The position numbers and the translations under genes were made by a program. The notes below the pieces were generated by a model that saw only the letters and a program-made list of their open reading frames with translations, ran no database searches and had not been told where the DNA came from. This document shows, in pieces, positions 341 through 5,408 of a DNA stretch of 5,408 nucleotides. Position 1 is the stretch's first letter, and every line of letters begins with the position of its first letter. Origin of the DNA: Bradyrhizobium sp. (lineage in GTDB: Bacteria; Pseudomonadota; Alphaproteobacteria; Rhizobiales; Xanthobacteraceae); contig JAQGKJ010000419.1 of NCBI GenBank assembly GCA_028290165.1, positions 1 to 5,408 of the forward strand. The letters run 5' to 3'.

Positions 341-670
341 TTAATGGTCCACGGTTTCGTCATTCTGATCGAGCGGTTCATGGCGCATTCCCTCTCCGTC
401 GTCAGGGCGCCCGAACAGTTCAAGCAGCCGGGTTTTCAACCGGTCGATCTCGGCCTGAATTCTCTCCGGGTCGTCGACGCCTGAAAAAAATTTGAGGTTC
501 GATATCCGCCGATCAGAGAGCTGGGTTTCCAGATCGCCGATGCGTTTGTCGATCCGCCTGATTTCGTACTCGCTCGCCCTTCGGCACCTGATCGAGCAGA
601 ACGTCGCGGGCCTGCCGGTCGCCTTCGACGGCGGCAAAATTCGCGGGCACAACGCGCATGTCGTCGGCAT
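341..670 (-). CDS. Zinc-finger and coiled-coil hypothetical protein (109 aa)
   Basis: From ATG 670 the frame gives 109 residues. The N-terminus holds C5-x2-C8 and, after a GRPATF turn, C25-S-x-x-C29, a four-cysteine zinc-binding pattern followed by RRASEYEIRR. Residues 35-60 and 69-86 are heptad-like and charged, typical of a coiled coil. The C-terminus is acidic and polar. The pattern C-x-x-C, GRPxxFCSxxCRRAxEYEIRR is one I associate with short hypothetical proteins of rhizobial and actinobacterial mobile regions; DNA binding and self-association are inferences. The frame extends upstream to a TTG at 757, but GGAG (683-680) lies 9 bases before ATG 670 and the extra 29 residues are basic and nondescript, so I prefer 670. 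The stop overlaps the ribosome site of the next gene (328-125). A 126-bp gap separates it from the 95-residue gene upstream. Confidence 0.78.
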   Translation of the reverse strand: MPTTCALCPRILPPSKATGRPATFCSIRCRRASEYEIRRIDKRIGDLETQLSDRRISNLKFFSGVDDPERIQAEIDRLKTRLLELFGRPDDGEGMRHEPLDQNDETVDH

Positions 671-679
671 TTTTAATTT

Positions 680-683
680 CTCC
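680..683 (-). promoter_or_regulatory. Ribosome binding site that sets the start at 670
   Basis: GGAG on the minus strand, with a 9-base A/T-rich spacer to ATG 670-668. This favours ATG 670 over the upstream TTG at 757, which would add 29 residues. Confidence 0.7.
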
Positions 684-796
684 ACTTGGCATTCACTTCG
701 TAACTTGCGGCGTAACACGCGCGACTCCCAGACCGGTCGCAGACCCCCTACCCCCAATTCCTTTCGAGGTACGCCCCGGGGGTGTGCCGTGCGCTG

Positions 797-1084
797 TCAT
801 CGCGCATCGCGCGCGCTCTTGTCATCGATAGCCGCTTCGACCTCTCGATATTTCGTCAGCTTGTCGAGACTTCTGAAACGCTGCTCGGCAGTTTCCTCAC
901 GCCAACCGCTGAACAGATTGGAGCCCACGTACCACTTCACCCTGTGGACGTCGCACACGAACCAATGCTCGCTGCCCGAATTCAGAAATCCGTTCGTCAT
1001 GTGACAGATCGGGCAGCCACCGAAATAATCGCCCCGTGTTTGCGTTGGTAAGCGCACGATGTTGTCGAGGTGGTTGTCAGGCAT
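797..1084 (-). CDS. Cys/His-containing conserved hypothetical protein (95 aa)
   Basis: The 95-residue protein runs from ATG 1084 to TGA 799-797. It has C24-P-I-C27, then a stretch with H40-W-F-V-C44-D-V-H47, giving a plausible CxxC...CxxH zinc site. It continues with R-V-K-W-Y-V-G-S-N-L-F-S-G-W-R (48-62) and a charged helical C-terminus. The block HWFVCDxHRxKWxxGxNLFSxWR is a signature I recognise from short hypothetical proteins common in Bradyrhizobium and relatives, usually called conserved hypothetical; I know no assigned activity. A strong GGAGG lies 5 bases before the ATG; the TTG at 1096 overlaps that site and is unlikely to be the start. Upstream is the repeat-rich stretch after the ATPase gene; downstream, after 126 bp, is the 109-residue zinc-finger gene. 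Confidence 0.8.
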   Translation of the reverse strand: MPDNHLDNIVRLPTQTRGDYFGGCPICHMTNGFLNSGSEHWFVCDVHRVKWYVGSNLFSGWREETAEQRFRSLDKLTKYREVEAAIDDKSARDAR

Positions 1085-1089
1085 ATGAG

Positions 1090-1094
1090 CCTCC
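1090..1094 (-). promoter_or_regulatory. Ribosome binding site that sets the start at 1084
   Basis: GGAGG on the minus strand, 5 bases before ATG 1084-1082. It overlaps the upstream TTG (1096-1094), which makes that TTG a poor start. Confidence 0.75.
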
Positions 1095-1147
1095 AAGTTT
1101 TCTTGCGTCGAAGTTGCGCAGCAAGGTGTCGCAATGGCACAACACGC

Positions 1148-1182
1148 GCGACACCCTGCTCCACCCTATAAGGGGGTGTCGC
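1148..1182. repeat. Inverted repeat GCGACACCC / GGGTGTCGC
   Basis: The arms are 1148-1156 and 1174-1182, a perfect 9-bp match with a 17-base spacer. The spacer has its own short symmetry, CCCT-ATA-AGGG (1164-1174), which competes for part of the right arm. The structure is made from two oppositely oriented copies of the 9-bp repeat. It could fold as RNA or bind a dimeric protein. Confidence 0.6.
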
Positions 1183-1301
1183 AGGTGTCGCAGTGTCGCA
1201 AAGCCGTGCTTAGCAGGCACTTCTGGCATTGGGGAACGTAGAGCTTTCATTTCAAGGTGTCGCATCTTCGAAAAGCCTTGTGTTTCCGAGGGTTTCTTCC
1301 G

Positions 1302-1333
1302 TTGCGACACTTCGGTCTCTGAAGGTGTCGCAA
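1302..1333 (-). repeat. Inverted repeat just downstream of the ATPase gene
   Basis: TTGCGACACTTC (1302-1313) can pair with GAAGGTGTCGCAA (1321-1333) with one bulged G, giving about 12 paired bases around a 7-base loop. It lies 19 bases past the ATPase stop and consists of inverted copies of the 9-bp repeat. There is no T-tract after it on the minus strand, so an intrinsic terminator is not well supported; mRNA 3'-end protection or protein binding is equally possible. Confidence 0.5.
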
Positions 1334-1351
1334 GGTGTCGCAAAGACTTTG

Positions 1352-2511
1352 CTATTCGGGCATCGGGCCGGGCACCACATAGGATCGTCTATGCCGTGAC
1401 GCCGGGTCCACGCGACACTCGACCGCCAATACGCCGTTGGCGATCCACGCTTTGAGCAGCGTCTTGATCCGCCTCTTTTCGGCGACGACATCTATATCGA
1501 GCACCTCAGCGACAGCGTTGCCGATCCAATCACCGGACTGACTGTCGTTTCGATAGTCTGTTTCGGCCGCCATCACGCGCACTCGCATCATGTCTGCGGT
1601 GCTGACGCCCTCGAAAACGCCGGGCATTTTCCAACGTTCGACGGTGGCGACGCTGTCGCCGTTCGGAAGATCAACAGGGACAAGGTGGAACCACTCAGCG
1701 GCTCCTAGAGGCTGGTAGTTTGACTTCCCGTCGGTAGCCCGGAAGTAGCCTCGGCGGTCGCCGACGCGCCCTTGCTGCGACTCTACCTCGCTCATAGCAT
1801 TCAGAATGCGGACCGATCGGGCGGCGTTCACGAGCGCCGATGCGCCGCGCGCATCCGAGACACCAGTTTCGACCTGGCCGCCCATCGGCGGCTTTCTTAC
1901 GTGATGGACGATCTCCACGGCCATGCTGTTCGCCGCCGCGATCTGCGCCCATTGCTTCACGACGCGATCGATCGCCGTGTTGTCGTTCTCCGAGACGCTA
2001 TGGCAACCGACGAAAGGATCGACGATGACGACATCGAAAAAGGTGAAGTCGAACGCGGCCGGTAAGTCGGCGACGACAATTTTGCCGCGCTCCATGCTGG
2101 CCGCGATGATTGGATGATCGAGCCCCGACTGATAGTGGAACTTGTCGTTAAGCTCCCTTGGGTCAATGCCGTAGTTCTGGCATACAGCGTACGTTCGGCG
2201 TATGATCTCGACGGCGGGCTCCTCCAAATTGATGTATAGAACGTCCTGCCGGACCGGCACCGCGACGCCGAGCAGGTTTAGGCCAAGCGCTATCGCGATG
2301 CCCTCGGCGATTGCCAGCGTGGATTTACCGACGCCGCCGTCAGCAACGGTCACGCTCACGCACCGCGCAGATAGTGTTTGCCGTAAATGAAATCACGACG
2401 CGGGAGCAATGCTGGATCACTGAAATTCGAAAGCGGTTTGATCAAATTGACGTTCGGTCGCGGAGCTGTTTCGCTTGCATCGTCCTGAGATGCTTGAACG
2501 TCGAGCGCCAT
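1352..2511 (-). pseudogene. RepA-like AAA ATPase (RecA-fold, AAA_25 type), split by a one-base frameshift
   Basis: The gene starts at ATG 2511. The first 51 codons include a segment reading DPALLPRRDFIYGKHYLRGA, the usual lead-in of this family to the P-loop, but meet TGA at 2358-2356. The remaining 335 codons are one frame over, from GTG 2359 to TAG 1354-1352. Joined, the protein is about 386 residues, near the family's usual size. In joined numbering: Walker A ADGGVGKS at about 57-64, YINLEEP at 92-98, Walker B strand VVIVD ending at D165, HHVRK at 203-207, RGASALVNAAR at 222-232, and a C-terminal winged-helix-like region near 320-380. These are features of the RepA hexameric helicase-like ATPases of plasmids and integrated elements (RSF1010 RepA kin), so a role in element replication is likely by family, not shown. 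The 335-residue part alone keeps the P-loop but lacks the N-terminal segment. No strong Shine-Dalgarno precedes ATG 2511; an in-frame TGA at 2523-2521 excludes an earlier start. Confidence 0.85.
2355..2361 (-). other. Frameshift site in the ATPase gene (GTGA overlap)
   Basis: On the minus strand the bases read GGT-GCG-TGA-GCG. The family consensus Arg-Gly-(x)-Val-Ser-Val-Thr-Val-Ala-x-Gly-Gly needs GCG followed by GTG-AGC-GTG, so one G appears to be missing. As it stands, the TGA overlaps a GTG in the next frame (GTGA), an arrangement that could in principle allow restart of translation. I see no slippery heptamer or strong ribosome site here. Confidence 0.8.
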
Positions 2512-2528
2512 ATAATGATTTCAATAAC

Positions 2529-2576
2529 TTACGCGGCATATTAGCAGCATTAGCGGCGTATATTAGCGGCATGCCG
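2529..2576 (-). promoter_or_regulatory. Tandem GCCGCTAA operator-like repeats upstream of the ATPase gene
   Basis: On the minus strand GCCGCTAA occurs at 2570-2563 and 2557-2550, then the variants GCTGCTAA (2548-2541) and GCCGCGTAA (2536-2528), all 18-60 bp before ATG 2511. The first copy runs into a perfect 10-bp palindrome, CGGCATGCCG (2567-2576). TAATAT hexamers between the copies could serve as a -10 element, though no clear -35 is seen. The position suggests an autoregulatory operator or excisionase-type binding array; no regulator gene is visible in the window. Confidence 0.55.
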
Positions 2577-2647
2577 GGAGACCAAACTAACGATCCGCGC
2601 GAGAAACCCCAGAGCGACTCGATTGGCGCTTTGGCATGCCCCGCTGA

Positions 2648-2752
2648 ACCACAACGTCGCGGCGTTTCATGGCGATTACAGCTGCAGCCGCGCCTGTTCT
2701 TGGCGCCGCCGTTCTTTTTTTGCGCGGGGCGTTCGACCTGGATCCGATCTGA
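2648..2752 (+). pseudogene. Possible decayed Tat-type signal sequence fragment
   Basis: One forward frame reads TSRRFMAITAAAAPVLGAAV and then LFLRGAFDLDPI before TGA at 2750-2752. SRRFM followed by an Ala/Val-rich hydrophobic stretch looks like a twin-arginine export signal. The frame has a stop (TGA 2645-2647) just before and no usable start before the twin arginines. ATG 2669 alone would give only 27 residues. Another frame through 2571-2660 ends in PAEPQRR, which would lead into the twin arginine if one base were added, and a T7 run (2715-2721) offers a second shift. The parent gene cannot be named, and chance composition is possible. Confidence 0.25.
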
Positions 2753-2859
2753 CTATCACGCTGCCTGCGGACCGCGGTCACCCAGAAGGCGCTGCGTGAC
2801 GTCTCGTCTCACTTATGCGCAAGATCCGCAATCTAGCATAGTCGACGCTCAAGCATGCG

Positions 2860-2940
2860 ATTGTGCCGATGTCTGCTTTGCCGCGCATAACAGACTCAAG
2901 TCAGACATCACGCCATGTCCGAAAAGTGCCGAAGTCATCG
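2860..2940. repeat. Segment resembling a Bradyrhizobium-type dispersed intergenic repeat
   Basis: The forward strand reads like the GATGTCTGC...CAGACATC...CATGTCCGAAA family of short dispersed sequences that I remember from Bradyrhizobium-type intergenic DNA (often mistranslated as MSALPPKAD-like peptides; here MSALPRITD). It contains a perfect 8-bp inverted repeat, GATGTCTG (2868-2875) and CAGACATC (2902-2909), with a 26-base spacer. Identification is from memory of the motif, not alignment. Confidence 0.4.
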
Positions 2941-2958
2941 CCGATGCAAGCCACTCGA

Positions 2959-5408
2959 TCAGAAATTCCAGGTAAATTTGCCTTTGACGGCATGGTCATG
3001 CAGATGCGTGGCCAACTCCCCGAAATACGACAGGCCGATCTTGGCTCGCGGACTTAGCTGTAAGTCGAATCCGCTCTCGACGATCGCCGCATCGCGGGCG
3101 AGAGGCACGCCCGCCACCGAGAACGAGACCCCGGTGGAGAGAAAGGTCAGCGCCGTCGTCGGCGTCACATCGCTGTAGGCGTGCTGCCAGTAGGCCGAAA
3201 CGCGCGGTACGATCGACATCCCGTTCACTAACGCGAAGCTTTCCGCGATTCGCAGGCCGAGCGACGAATAACCGATATCTTCAGTCACGCGCGAACCGGC
3301 AAGCGCAGCGCCGCCGCCGGCCTCGGTAAAGCTGCCGGTGTCGAGATGCACATAGGCCAGTCCCGCGAACGGCTCGACCGCCAAGTTACCGAACGCCCTC
3401 GCGTAGCCGACTTCGCCGAACAGCTGGCTGGTGCTCGCGCCATAATGCGCGGTCGCATTGTCGATGAAGCCGGGAAACAGGATCGTGCGGCTGGTGCCGA
3501 TCGTGTTCCATGCGAAGGCCGCGCCGGATCGGAAATTCAGCGGTCCATAGTCCGCGCCGGCGTAGGCGGCAAGATGCGCCGTATCGATATTGGCAGCACT
3601 TGCGCGCGCATTCACGTTGACGCTCGAATTGGTGTAGCCGCCGGCGATGCCTAGCCGCCAGTTGTCACCGTAGCGACGGTCGACACCGGTAAAGAAGCCG
3701 GCCAGGCTGCGCGAAACATCGGCCGCGTTGCCATCACCGCTGATCCTGCCCCAAGCGCCGATGCCCTGTGACCACCATGTCAAATCAGATGCCGGAGCTT
3801 GCGCCGCGAGCGGCGCGGCCTTGACCGGAAAACCCGACTTGCCGACCGCGTCGTAGGCATTCGATGTATCCGTATAAGCAAAGGCCGGTCCTCCGATGCC
3901 GAGCGCCGCCATTGCTCCGCCGGTGCCCGCAAACGACGCCTGGCGCAGCCGCCCTTCCAAGGCGTCGCGTACGAACAGGCTGTCGTCGGCCAGTGTGCTC
4001 TGCAAGCTGGCGTGAATTTCGCCCGACAGGCTGTCGAACGCCTGCCTCGCCGACGCGCCGCTGAGGCCCGCCGCCGCCAGGAAAAGCGGATTATCCGTCG
4101 GGAAACGATCGAACGCACCAGCTACCGCGCGCTGGTTACGTGTTAGCGCCTGATCCTGGAAGAAGGTCGGGTTGCGGCTCAGGTTCAGAAAAACATCGTT
4201 GGCGTCATAGGACAGCGTCGCCGTCAGGAACGCAAGATTGTCGGTGACACCGGAAAACGCCCCGCTCACGCCGCCATTGGCGGCGAGAATTCGATAGGTC
4301 ACCGCCGACGAGTAGGCGCCGGCTGGCGATACAACCTGCACTGTGCCGCCGGACAGCGTTGCCGTGCCGGTGGCGAGGATCTTGTCCGATTGTCCGGCGA
4401 GGTTGGTCTCCACCTGATAGACGCCGCCGGTGAAGCTGACGTTGCCGCTGACGTTCAACGTGCCGATCGAATGGCCGGGCCCGACCGTGCCGCCGTTCAC
4501 AATCAGGCCGCCCAGTGTGCCATTGCCGGCCAGAAGCCCGCCATTGATGGTGAATGGGCCTGTGGTGCCGTCGATCGAGCTGATGCCGCCGTTCATCACG
4601 GCGGGCCCGGCGATGCCACCGGCGAGCACCGAGAACAGGCCGCCGTTGATTGTCGCCGCGCCAACGGTGCCGGCGATCGTGCTCGTGCCACCATTGGTCG
4701 TGACCGGTCCGCCAATTCCGCCGGCAAGCACCGAAAACGAACCGCCATTGACCGTCGACACGCCGACGGTGCCGGCGATCGAGCTCGTGCCACCGTTCGC
4801 AGTGACCGATCCGCCAATTCCGCCGGCCAGCACCGAGAACTGACCGCCATTGACAGTCGCCGCCCCGATCGTGCCGGTCACCGACAGTGTACCCGCCTGC
4901 ACCGTGAAGGGCGAGTTCGCAAGCGAGCCGGCCACATTGAGCGTGCCCTGCAGCACGGTCCACGGCAGCACCAGCGCATTGGTGCCCGTGAGCGTCCAGG
5001 TCGAGGCATCGATCTTGTTGAAGCTGGCAAAGCCCCGGTATTGCGCCGCCGGTCCGATCAGCGCTGCGTTGAAGCTGCCGCTTCCCGACGCACCGCCGAG
5101 CTGGAACACGTCGGCGCCGGTACCGACCACGTTGCCGGAGATGACGCTGGTCGGCGCAATGGTCAGGATGTTACCGCTGCCGGCGAACTGAACGGCTGTC
5201 CCGCCGGTGCCGGTGATCGTTCCGGCGTTGAAGACATTCACAGCCCCAACCGTCGCCGACACCCCGGTCGGTCCCGTGATGGTGCCGAGGTTGTTGAGGG
5301 CGCTTGCAGTGCCTCCAAGAAAATTGATTCCGGCCAGGGTGCCCACAATCGCGGCGGAGTTATTGACGACGTTTTTTCCGGTGGTCGCGGTGACATCGAT
5401 GGCATCGC
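2959..5408 (-). CDS. Autotransporter (type V secretion): passenger end and complete beta-barrel; N-terminus outside window
   Basis: The frame is open from the right edge to TGA 2961-2959, giving 815 visible residues; the GTG at 5346 is internal, because the 20 codons before it continue the same Gly/Asn/Thr-rich style. Residues 1-410 are passenger: beta-helix-like repeats of short strands with NGG turns, including three tandem 34-residue repeats at 178-279, then a VGPGHSIGTL-type segment and strands typical of the passenger end. Residues about 420-540 form a linker including FFQDQALTRNQ. The barrel starts near W544-W545 (WWSQGIGAWGR) and continues for about 270 residues of alternating strands to a terminal F815 (KFTWNF), the usual outer-membrane beta-signal. 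I see no cysteine. By family, the barrel inserts in the outer membrane via Bam and the passenger is displayed or released at the surface; the ligand is unknown. Signal peptide and true start lie beyond 5408. Confidence 0.95.
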   Translation of the reverse strand, partial: DAIDVTATTGKNVVNNSAAIVGTLAGINFLGGTASALNNLGTITGPTGVSATVGAVNVFNAGTITGTGGTAVQFAGSGNILTIAPTSVISGNVVGTGADVFQLGGASGSGSFNAALIGPAAQYRGFASFNKIDASTWTLTGTNALVLPWTVLQGTLNVAGSLANSPFTVQAGTLSVTGTIGAATVNGGQFSVLAGGIGGSVTANGGTSSIAGTVGVSTVNGGSFSVLAGGIGGPVTTNGGTSTIAGTVGAATINGGLFSVLAGGIAGPAVMNGGISSIDGTTGPFTINGGLLAGNGTLGGLIVNGGTVGPGHSIGTLNVSGNVSFTGGVYQVETNLAGQSDKILATGTATLSGGTVQVVSPAGAYSSAVTYRILAANGGVSGAFSGVTDNLAFLTATLSYDANDVFLNLSRNPTFFQDQALTRNQRAVAGAFDRFPTDNPLFLAAAGLSGASARQAFDSLSGEIHASLQSTLADDSLFVRDALEGRLRQASFAGTGGAMAALGIGGPAFAYTDTSNAYDAVGKSGFPVKAAPLAAQAPASDLTWWSQGIGAWGRISGDGNAADVSRSLAGFFTGVDRRYGDNWRLGIAGGYTNSSVNVNARASAANIDTAHLAAYAGADYGPLNFRSGAAFAWNTIGTSRTILFPGFIDNATAHYGASTSQLFGEVGYARAFGNLAVEPFAGLAYVHLDTGSFTEAGGGAALAGSRVTEDIGYSSLGLRIAESFALVNGMSIVPRVSAYWQHAYSDVTPTTALTFLSTGVSFSVAGVPLARDAAIVESGFDLQLSPRAKIGLSYFGELATHLHDHAVKGKFTWNF
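4570..4875 (-). repeat. Three tandem 102-bp repeats in the autotransporter passenger
   Basis: Units run 4875-4774, 4773-4672 and 4671-4570, each encoding 34 residues: GT-x-G-xx-T-[VI]-NGG-x-FSVLAGGI then a variable NGG-x-S-[ST]-I-[AD]. The DNA is well conserved at exact 102-bp register (for example CCGCCAATTCCGCCGG at 4811 and 4709). A shorter, diverged fourth copy begins at 4569 (GTTGPFTINGG). Units of this kind fit stacked rungs of a beta-helix. Sequence similarity between units suggests expansion by recombination or slippage. Confidence 0.88.

What the first reader, a model, noticed from the sequence alone, without database searches (positions are those of the whole stretch)
2340..2511. 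RepA-like ATPase gene broken by a single-base frameshift just before the P-loop
The 51-codon frame from ATG 2511 encodes the family lead-in FIYGKHYLRGA, and the following frame starts exactly at VSVTVADGGVGKST. Together they match the continuous family pattern, but one base is missing near 2356-2360. Automatic callers would likely start the gene at GTG 2359 and lose the true N-terminus. The split is a sequencing error, a very recent inactivation (the remaining 335 codons look intact), or a GTGA-coupled two-cistron form.
Basis: partly seen in the sequence, partly recalled or inferred. Interest (0 to 1): 0.7.

Follow-up and report, generated by a model that had tools for sequence, protein, structure and literature searches.

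The report
Broken phage replication gene beside its origin
A bacterial DNA fragment carries a virus-type DNA-unwinding gene split in two by a slip of the reading frame, and right behind it a set of short repeats that look like the start point of DNA copying which this protein's tail is built to recognise.

Summary
Window 2359-2511 (51 codons) and 1355-2359 (335 codons), minus strand, are adjoining pieces of one RepA-family (AAA_25) helicase that is continuous in relatives. Among 220 distinct copies read as DNA, 216 keep the lead-in in frame, 3 are cut by contig ends, and only the window is closed. A natural two-cistron form is unlikely. Recent inactivation or assembly error cannot be told apart here; the rest of the gene shows no decay.

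The more interesting feature lies outside the given coordinates. The protein ends in a predicted winged helix. Directly downstream (1125-1342) are nine copies of GGTGTCGCA around a small palindrome. About half of the relatives have such an array, each with its own repeat sequence, and that sequence follows residues of the winged helix: Gln274 goes with GG and Arg/Lys274 with AC at repeat positions 1-2; residue 323 follows position 6. A tree-based pair test supports both links. The window fits when held out.

Best reading: a helicase-initiator with its own iteron origin, organised like SaPI Rep or phage P4 alpha but built on an RSF1010-RepA-type helicase. The frame break itself is ordinary.

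The parts
2356..2511 (-). N-terminal piece of the split helicase gene: 51 codons plus TGA, ending in the family lead-in FIYGKHYLRGA
   Evidence: matches to relatives
2355..2361 (-). frame break; GTGA overlap of the first piece's stop with the GTG of the second
   Evidence: the only one among 220 distinct copies
1352..2359 (-). second piece, 335 codons plus stop: RecA-fold RepA-type helicase (residues 1-246) and winged-helix tail (about 250-335)
2318..2338 (-). P-loop GGVGKST (residues 8-14 of the 335-residue piece)
   Evidence: sequence; G8, G11, K12 invariant in alignment A1
1355..1612 (-). C-terminal winged-helix domain (residues 250-335); Gln274 (1538-1540) and His323 (1391-1393) are the residues that track the iteron sequence across the family
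   Evidence: AlphaFold2 pLDDT 94.2
1125..1342 (.). iteron array: nine GGTGTCGCA copies (six exact, three with one mismatch; two on the minus strand) at 1125, 1147, 1175, 1184, 1192, 1256, 1303, 1324, 1334
   Evidence: position shared with relatives
1162..1178 (.). short palindrome CACCC-TATAAGG-GGGTG inside the iteron array, weak counterpart of the family's C-run/TA/G-run palindrome
   Evidence: sequence; family test
2512..2958 (.). 447-nt gap before the gene; no primase found here, whereas 7 of 10 relatives chosen for a Pfam scan have a Toprim_3/DUF7146 primase directly upstream or fused

Best explanation
The two pieces are one replication gene of a phage or phage-like element, probably in an alphaproteobacterium (inferred from named relatives), broken in this copy by a frame slip before the P-loop. 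Intact relatives make a RepA-type (RecA-fold) helicase, expected to be a ring, whose C-terminal winged helix binds iterons lying directly behind its own gene, opens or loads at the palindrome between them, and starts copying with a Toprim primase encoded next to it or fused to it. Shown here by computation: the split, the helicase fold, the winged-helix prediction, the iteron array with an element-specific core in about half of the relatives, and the covariation of that core with residues 274 and 323. Inferred: physical binding, origin activity, loading, priming, and that the broken copy does not work. Cause of the break: recent inactivation of a remnant element about 0.5, assembly or sequencing error about 0.4, a working split form about 0.1.
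Against: No binding or replication data. 111 of 216 copies show no 8-mer in 4 copies downstream; the named phage RHph_X2_26 has no array. The code is imperfect (3 of 56 Gln274 loci have AC, 2 have AG) and rests on a repeat caller with a fixed shape; only repeat positions 1, 4, 5 and 6 were tested. Position 6 = A with Arg323 is not significant (median p 0.125). Positions 4 and 5 are weak: for position 4 residue rules reach 71 and 78 of 85 against 75 for always guessing G, and the top column over disjoint pairs is 258, with 325 third; for position 5 residue 323 differs in 25 of 30 differing and 26 of 37 same pairs. Helicase residues 177, 174 and 178 also score for position 1 (z 9-12), though they fail as tree controls. 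The tracking residues lie before helix 2 and in the wing, not in the usual recognition helix. A primase was found upstream by plain similarity in only 49 of 220 copies. Five of the other 119 listed proteins are annotated from the same point and their DNA could not be read. Lack of decay fits an assembly error as well as a recent loss.
Confidence: 0.8

Rival explanations
1. The frame break is a sequencing or assembly error and the gene is intact in the organism.
For: No other disruption in about 1,160 coding bases; conserved sites kept; tail and iterons still match the family code; no whole genome is held for this 5408-base contig.
Confidence: 0.4
2. The split is functional: the 51-residue piece and the 335-residue ATPase are made as two coupled polypeptides through the GTGA overlap.
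For: GTGA overlap is a known coupling signal (recalled); the 335-residue piece keeps the first strand, the P-loop and the DNA-binding tail; five database proteins are annotated from the same point.
Against: 216 of 216 other readable copies are continuous; no ribosome-binding-like run is seen before GTG 2359 (by eye).
Confidence: 0.1
3. The downstream repeats are regulatory sites, or sites of another DNA-binding protein, and not a replication origin read by the helicase.
For: No binding or replication experiment; half of the family lacks a clear array.
Against: The repeat sequence follows residues of the helicase's own tail, with control for relatedness; the place right after the helicase gene is that of SaPI/PICI origins (passages).
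Confidence: 0.15

Closest known systems
RSF1010 (IncQ) RepA helicase
   Same: Same helicase fold and only PDB sequence relative; works with a primase and iterons on its plasmid (recalled)
   Different: RSF1010 divides initiation over three polypeptides (passage in PMC4234260); the listed IncQ-type hits reach residue 251-272 of the window piece and 230-255 of L298 (25 of 741 records listed), so the winged-helix tail is not covered
SaPI / PICI Rep with downstream iteron origin (also SCCmec Cch2)
   Same: Initiator helicase whose C-terminal domain recognises iterons directly downstream of its gene (passages in PMC7581432); primase and rep adjacent or fused, then ori with two iteron sets around an AT-rich stretch (passages in PMC6092414)
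   Different: Those helicases are described there as DUF927- or Primase_Cterm/D5-type, ours is RecA-fold RepA/AAA_25; the centre here is a C-run/TA/G-run palindrome; [quoted passage not shown]
Salmonella genomic island 1 rep-oriV
   Same: Iterons immediately downstream of rep (passage in PMC7433901)
   Different: 17-bp iterons with a putative DnaA box and AT-rich regions; SGI1 Rep was not compared here
Phage P4 alpha protein and its origin
   Same: C-terminal winged helix binds repeats at the origin; Toprim-type primase in the same module (passage in PMC4234260)
   Different: One fused protein with another helicase type and its own repeat (recalled); no sequence hit to it or 79
Geminivirus Rep and iterons
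   Same: Element-specific iterons bound by cognate Rep, differing among close relatives (abstract of PMC12548392)
   Different: Rolling-circle Rep of plant viruses, unrelated in fold and mechanism (recalled)

Membership tests
RSF1010 RepA-type (AAA_25) helicase | AAA_25 / RecA-fold domain with P-loop | tested here: met
RSF1010 RepA-type (AAA_25) helicase | hexamer formation and unwinding | not testable with these tools
   needs purified protein
SaPI/PICI-type rep-ori module | iterons immediately 3' of the initiator gene | tested here: met
   window iterons 1125-1342 behind the stop at 1352; relatives (105 of 216)
SaPI/PICI-type rep-ori module | C-terminal domain of the initiator recognises the iterons | tested here: inconclusive
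   covariation with tail residues supports it; no binding data
SaPI/PICI-type rep-ori module | primase gene adjacent or fused | tested here: not met
   no primase in 8 window ORFs scanned and best primase match E 0.48; the window itself is not filed as a PICI. Relatives: 7 of 10 chosen, 49 of 220 by plain similarity
SaPI/PICI-type rep-ori module | helper-phage-induced island with integrase and packaging genes | not tested
   window too short; no integrase among the ORFs scanned, no tRNA
Phage P4 alpha family | relation to the P4 alpha origin-binding domain | tested here: inconclusive
   no PDB sequence hit for the tail profile A5; not listed
Natural two-cistron (GTGA-coupled) gene | split conserved in relatives | tested here: not met
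   216 of 216 other readable copies continuous

The most novel reading that the evidence does not exclude
A large class of phage and phage-plasmid replicons (the named carriers are alphaproteobacteria) initiates with a RepA-type helicase that reads its own downstream origin through a winged helix with a simple, repeatedly switched residue-to-base code (residue 274 Gln to GG, Arg/Lys to AC; residue 323 to position 6), so that each element has a private origin; the window holds a broken member whose tail and iterons still match.
Probability: 0.7. Interest if true: 0.65.

Novelty: new variant of a known kind. Interest (0 to 1): 0.5.

Why it matters
The frame break alone matters little beyond annotation. 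The origin code would matter: it would extend the SaPI/P4 principle (a helicase that recognises iterons behind its own gene) to another helicase fold and to phages and phage-plasmids, would let origins and replicon compatibility be read from sequence, and offers a natural series of variants for testing how a winged helix reads DNA with its wing and the loop before helix 2. It also makes testable why such elements keep private iterons.

Tried and rejected
Conserved two-cistron form: rejected on DNA of 220 distinct copies. These came from 299 loci with a match, the window included; 79 were dropped because they were identical, had no stop in the locus, no P-loop near the start of the match, or under 250 residues after it, so short remnants such as the G378 copy are not counted. 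Decay of the gene: no excess of changed invariant sites. Chance repeats: 0 of 200 shuffles reach the 10 matches of the window, largest 8, pattern chosen after seeing it; position controls in relatives. Overlap of iterons with the codons of residues 321-325: excluded by calling repeats only after the stop, 84 of 85 calls unchanged. Relatedness as the cause of covariation: disjoint pairs and independent tree pairs (quick tree; 6 of 85 rows with neither GG nor AC left out; the grouping His/Lys323 was chosen after seeing the table). ORFs 128-328, 344-757, 800-1096 and 1080-1343: no family at E<=0.01 in Pfam or PHROGs; the first three also none in NCBIfam; best match to the loci held E 0.019. Primase in the window: best E 0.48 for two primase queries; the third query, which runs into the helicase, hit only the lead-in at 2365-2466. 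Close relatives (69-77% identical, P0002-P0011) as DNA: no relative that close in the viral-contig answers (80 best of 315 kept), in 265 genomes of one genus or 391 of its family. Rfam: 0 matches at gathering scores. tRNA: 0. Promoter and terminator scans: at chance level. P4 alpha is not among the rows; that absence says little.

Literature: ten searches listed no paper that by title or shown abstract describes this code in AAA_25/RepA-type phage helicases. Passages were read in PMC6092414, PMC7145576, PMC5537653, PMC7433901, PMC4234260 and PMC7581432, abstract and section list of PMC12548392; all others only as listings.

Full report
What was claimed and what is there. Both frames exist as stated. 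The 51-codon frame (2356-2511, minus strand, stop included) ends FIYGKHYLRGA; the next frame, in another phase, starts with GTG 2359 and runs 335 codons to a stop at 1352-1354. In relatives the two are one protein: in P0004 the short piece matches residues 9-55 (79%) and the long piece residues 56-390 (76%); the ten closest relatives, of 389-398 residues, show the same.

Is the split natural? DNA of relatives came from viral contigs, plasmids and genomes. Of 299 loci with a match, 220 gave distinct proteins that passed the filters. In 216 the frame is open through the lead-in, 3 are cut by contig ends, and the window alone is closed. So the split is particular to this copy. Against this, five of the other 119 listed proteins are annotated from the same point and their DNA was out of reach.

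Error or inactivation? No reads were available. The window departs from otherwise invariant sites at 8 of 143 (one is the start Met), within the 1-13 seen for ten relatives, so there is no sign of long decay. The element looks incomplete: upstream lie a 447-nt gap and the end of an autotransporter gene, and no primase was found. In relatives, 7 of 10 upstream proteins that I chose from the list pass the Pfam cut-off for Toprim_3 or DUF7146 (one of them fused), 1 is weak and 2 have none; a plain similarity search with three queries found a primase upstream in 49 of 220 copies, and 25 others hold under 1,300 nt upstream. Whether the closest relatives have one is unknown. I put recent inactivation at about 0.5, error at 0.4, a working split form at 0.1.

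The iteron array. Right behind the stop lie nine copies of GGTGTCGCA (up to one mismatch, both strands) in 1125-1342; the whole window has 10 matches against 1.98 expected, shuffles reach at most 8 in 200 (pattern chosen after seeing it). In relatives, an unbiased 400-nt scan of 72 long loci finds 8-mers in five or more copies in 28, 70 and 17 of 144 stretches in the three bins around the gene end, and in 0-2 of every other bin out to 6 kb. In 216 copies with enough sequence, 105 have an 8-mer in four or more copies in the 450 nt after the stop, against 1 of 203 for the 450 nt before the matched region (mostly coding) and 0 of 216 elsewhere. A palindrome of C-run, T/A, G-run lies downstream in 59 of 216, against 0 of 203 and 1 of 216; with a looser pattern in the 85-locus set, iterons lie on both sides of it in 35 of 43. 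The window has a weak form at 1162-1178. Half of the family (111 of 216) shows no clear array, and the named phage RHph_X2_26 has none.

The code. The repeat has a fixed shape, mostly (GG or AC)T NNN GCA, and an element-specific core; the caller looks for that shape. Of 105 copies with three or more exact repeats, 4 with uncertain calls were dropped, and 101 were reduced to 85 at 90% identity. Repeat positions 1, 4, 5 and 6 were tested against 290 protein columns, with repeats called only after the stop (82 loci). The top column for each lies in the winged helix: position 1 with residue 274 (z 30.7; then 177, 174 and 178 in the helicase part, 11.6-8.9), position 6 with 323 (15.0) and 321 (8.8), position 5 with 323 (8.1), position 4 with 270 (7.8) and 325 (7.7). 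Gln274 goes with GG in 51 of 56, Arg/Lys274 with AC in 24 of 26; His323 with C at position 6 in 9 of 9, Arg323 with A in 13 of 16. Leaving one out, residue 274 predicts positions 1-2 in 75 of 85 (nearest helicase neighbour 57, majority 51), and 323 with 321 predicts position 6 in 70 of 85 (46, 34); position 5 from 323 gives 55 of 85 (35, 44); for position 4 the gain is nil to small (71 and 78 against 75).

Control for relatedness. In disjoint pairs of helicases at least 50% identical, residue 274 differs in 25 of 30 pairs with different positions 1-2 and 4 of 39 with the same; residue 323 in 35 of 37 against 19 of 38 for position 6; for position 5 there is little contrast (25 of 30, 26 of 37), and for position 4 the best column is 258, not 325. 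On a tree of the helicase part only, GG/AC changes at least 14 times; on seven supported independent pairs residue 274 follows in 6.8 and opposes in 0.0 (median p 0.016), four control residues follow in 1.1-1.2; position 6 = C follows His/Lys323 in 10.0 of 11 and opposes in 0.0 (median p 0.002); Arg323 with A is not significant. Held out, the window's Gln274, His323 and Arg325 predict GG, C and G, which its iterons have; position 5 is not predicted. I take the links of 274 and 323 as well supported and those for positions 4 and 5 as leads.

How it most likely works. By analogy with SaPI Rep and Cch2 (C-terminal domain recognising iterons directly downstream of the gene; passages in PMC7581432), PICI replicons (passages in PMC6092414) and P4 alpha (passage in PMC4234260), the helicase binds its own downstream iterons by its tail, is placed at the palindrome, unwinds, and is primed by the Toprim protein. 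Binding, loading and priming are inferred. What differs is the helicase (RepA/RecA fold), the central palindrome, and the carriers: phage structural genes stand near the gene in plasmids L004 and L006, and most loci fetched are viral contigs. [quoted passage not shown] if origin function is proven, this family would be another case. SGI1 too has iterons right behind rep (passage in PMC7433901).

Verdict. Observation confirmed; cause of the break open; two-cistron form unlikely. The frame break is ordinary. The iteron code is a new variant of a known kind and is directly testable.

Noticed in passing
window 2959-5406, minus strand: Autotransporter gene (beta-domain PF03797, 205 bits), open at the window end, with about three 102-bp tandem repeats at 4564-4877; its 3' end faces the replication gene across a 447-nt gap.
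   Followed up: partly
window 2520-2575, minus strand: Short repeated motif GCTAAT / GCCGC just upstream of ATG 2511 (seen by eye), possibly an operator or promoter element.
   Followed up: no
window 344-757 and 800-1096, minus strand: Two small ORFs downstream of the iterons with Cys-containing, zinc-ribbon-like stretches (by eye) and no family match.
   Followed up: partly
P0013, P0022, P0024, P0033, P0100: Five relatives annotated as starting at the window's break point; may be caller artefacts or further broken copies.
   Followed up: partly
L331 (G584:C1:5464800-5467300) and L332 (G378:C10:110600-113200): Two other broken copies of the family: a frame break near residue 171 and a truncated gene.
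   Followed up: partly
L101:462-1490: Translation over the match contains a stop codon; not examined whether it is internal.
   Followed up: no
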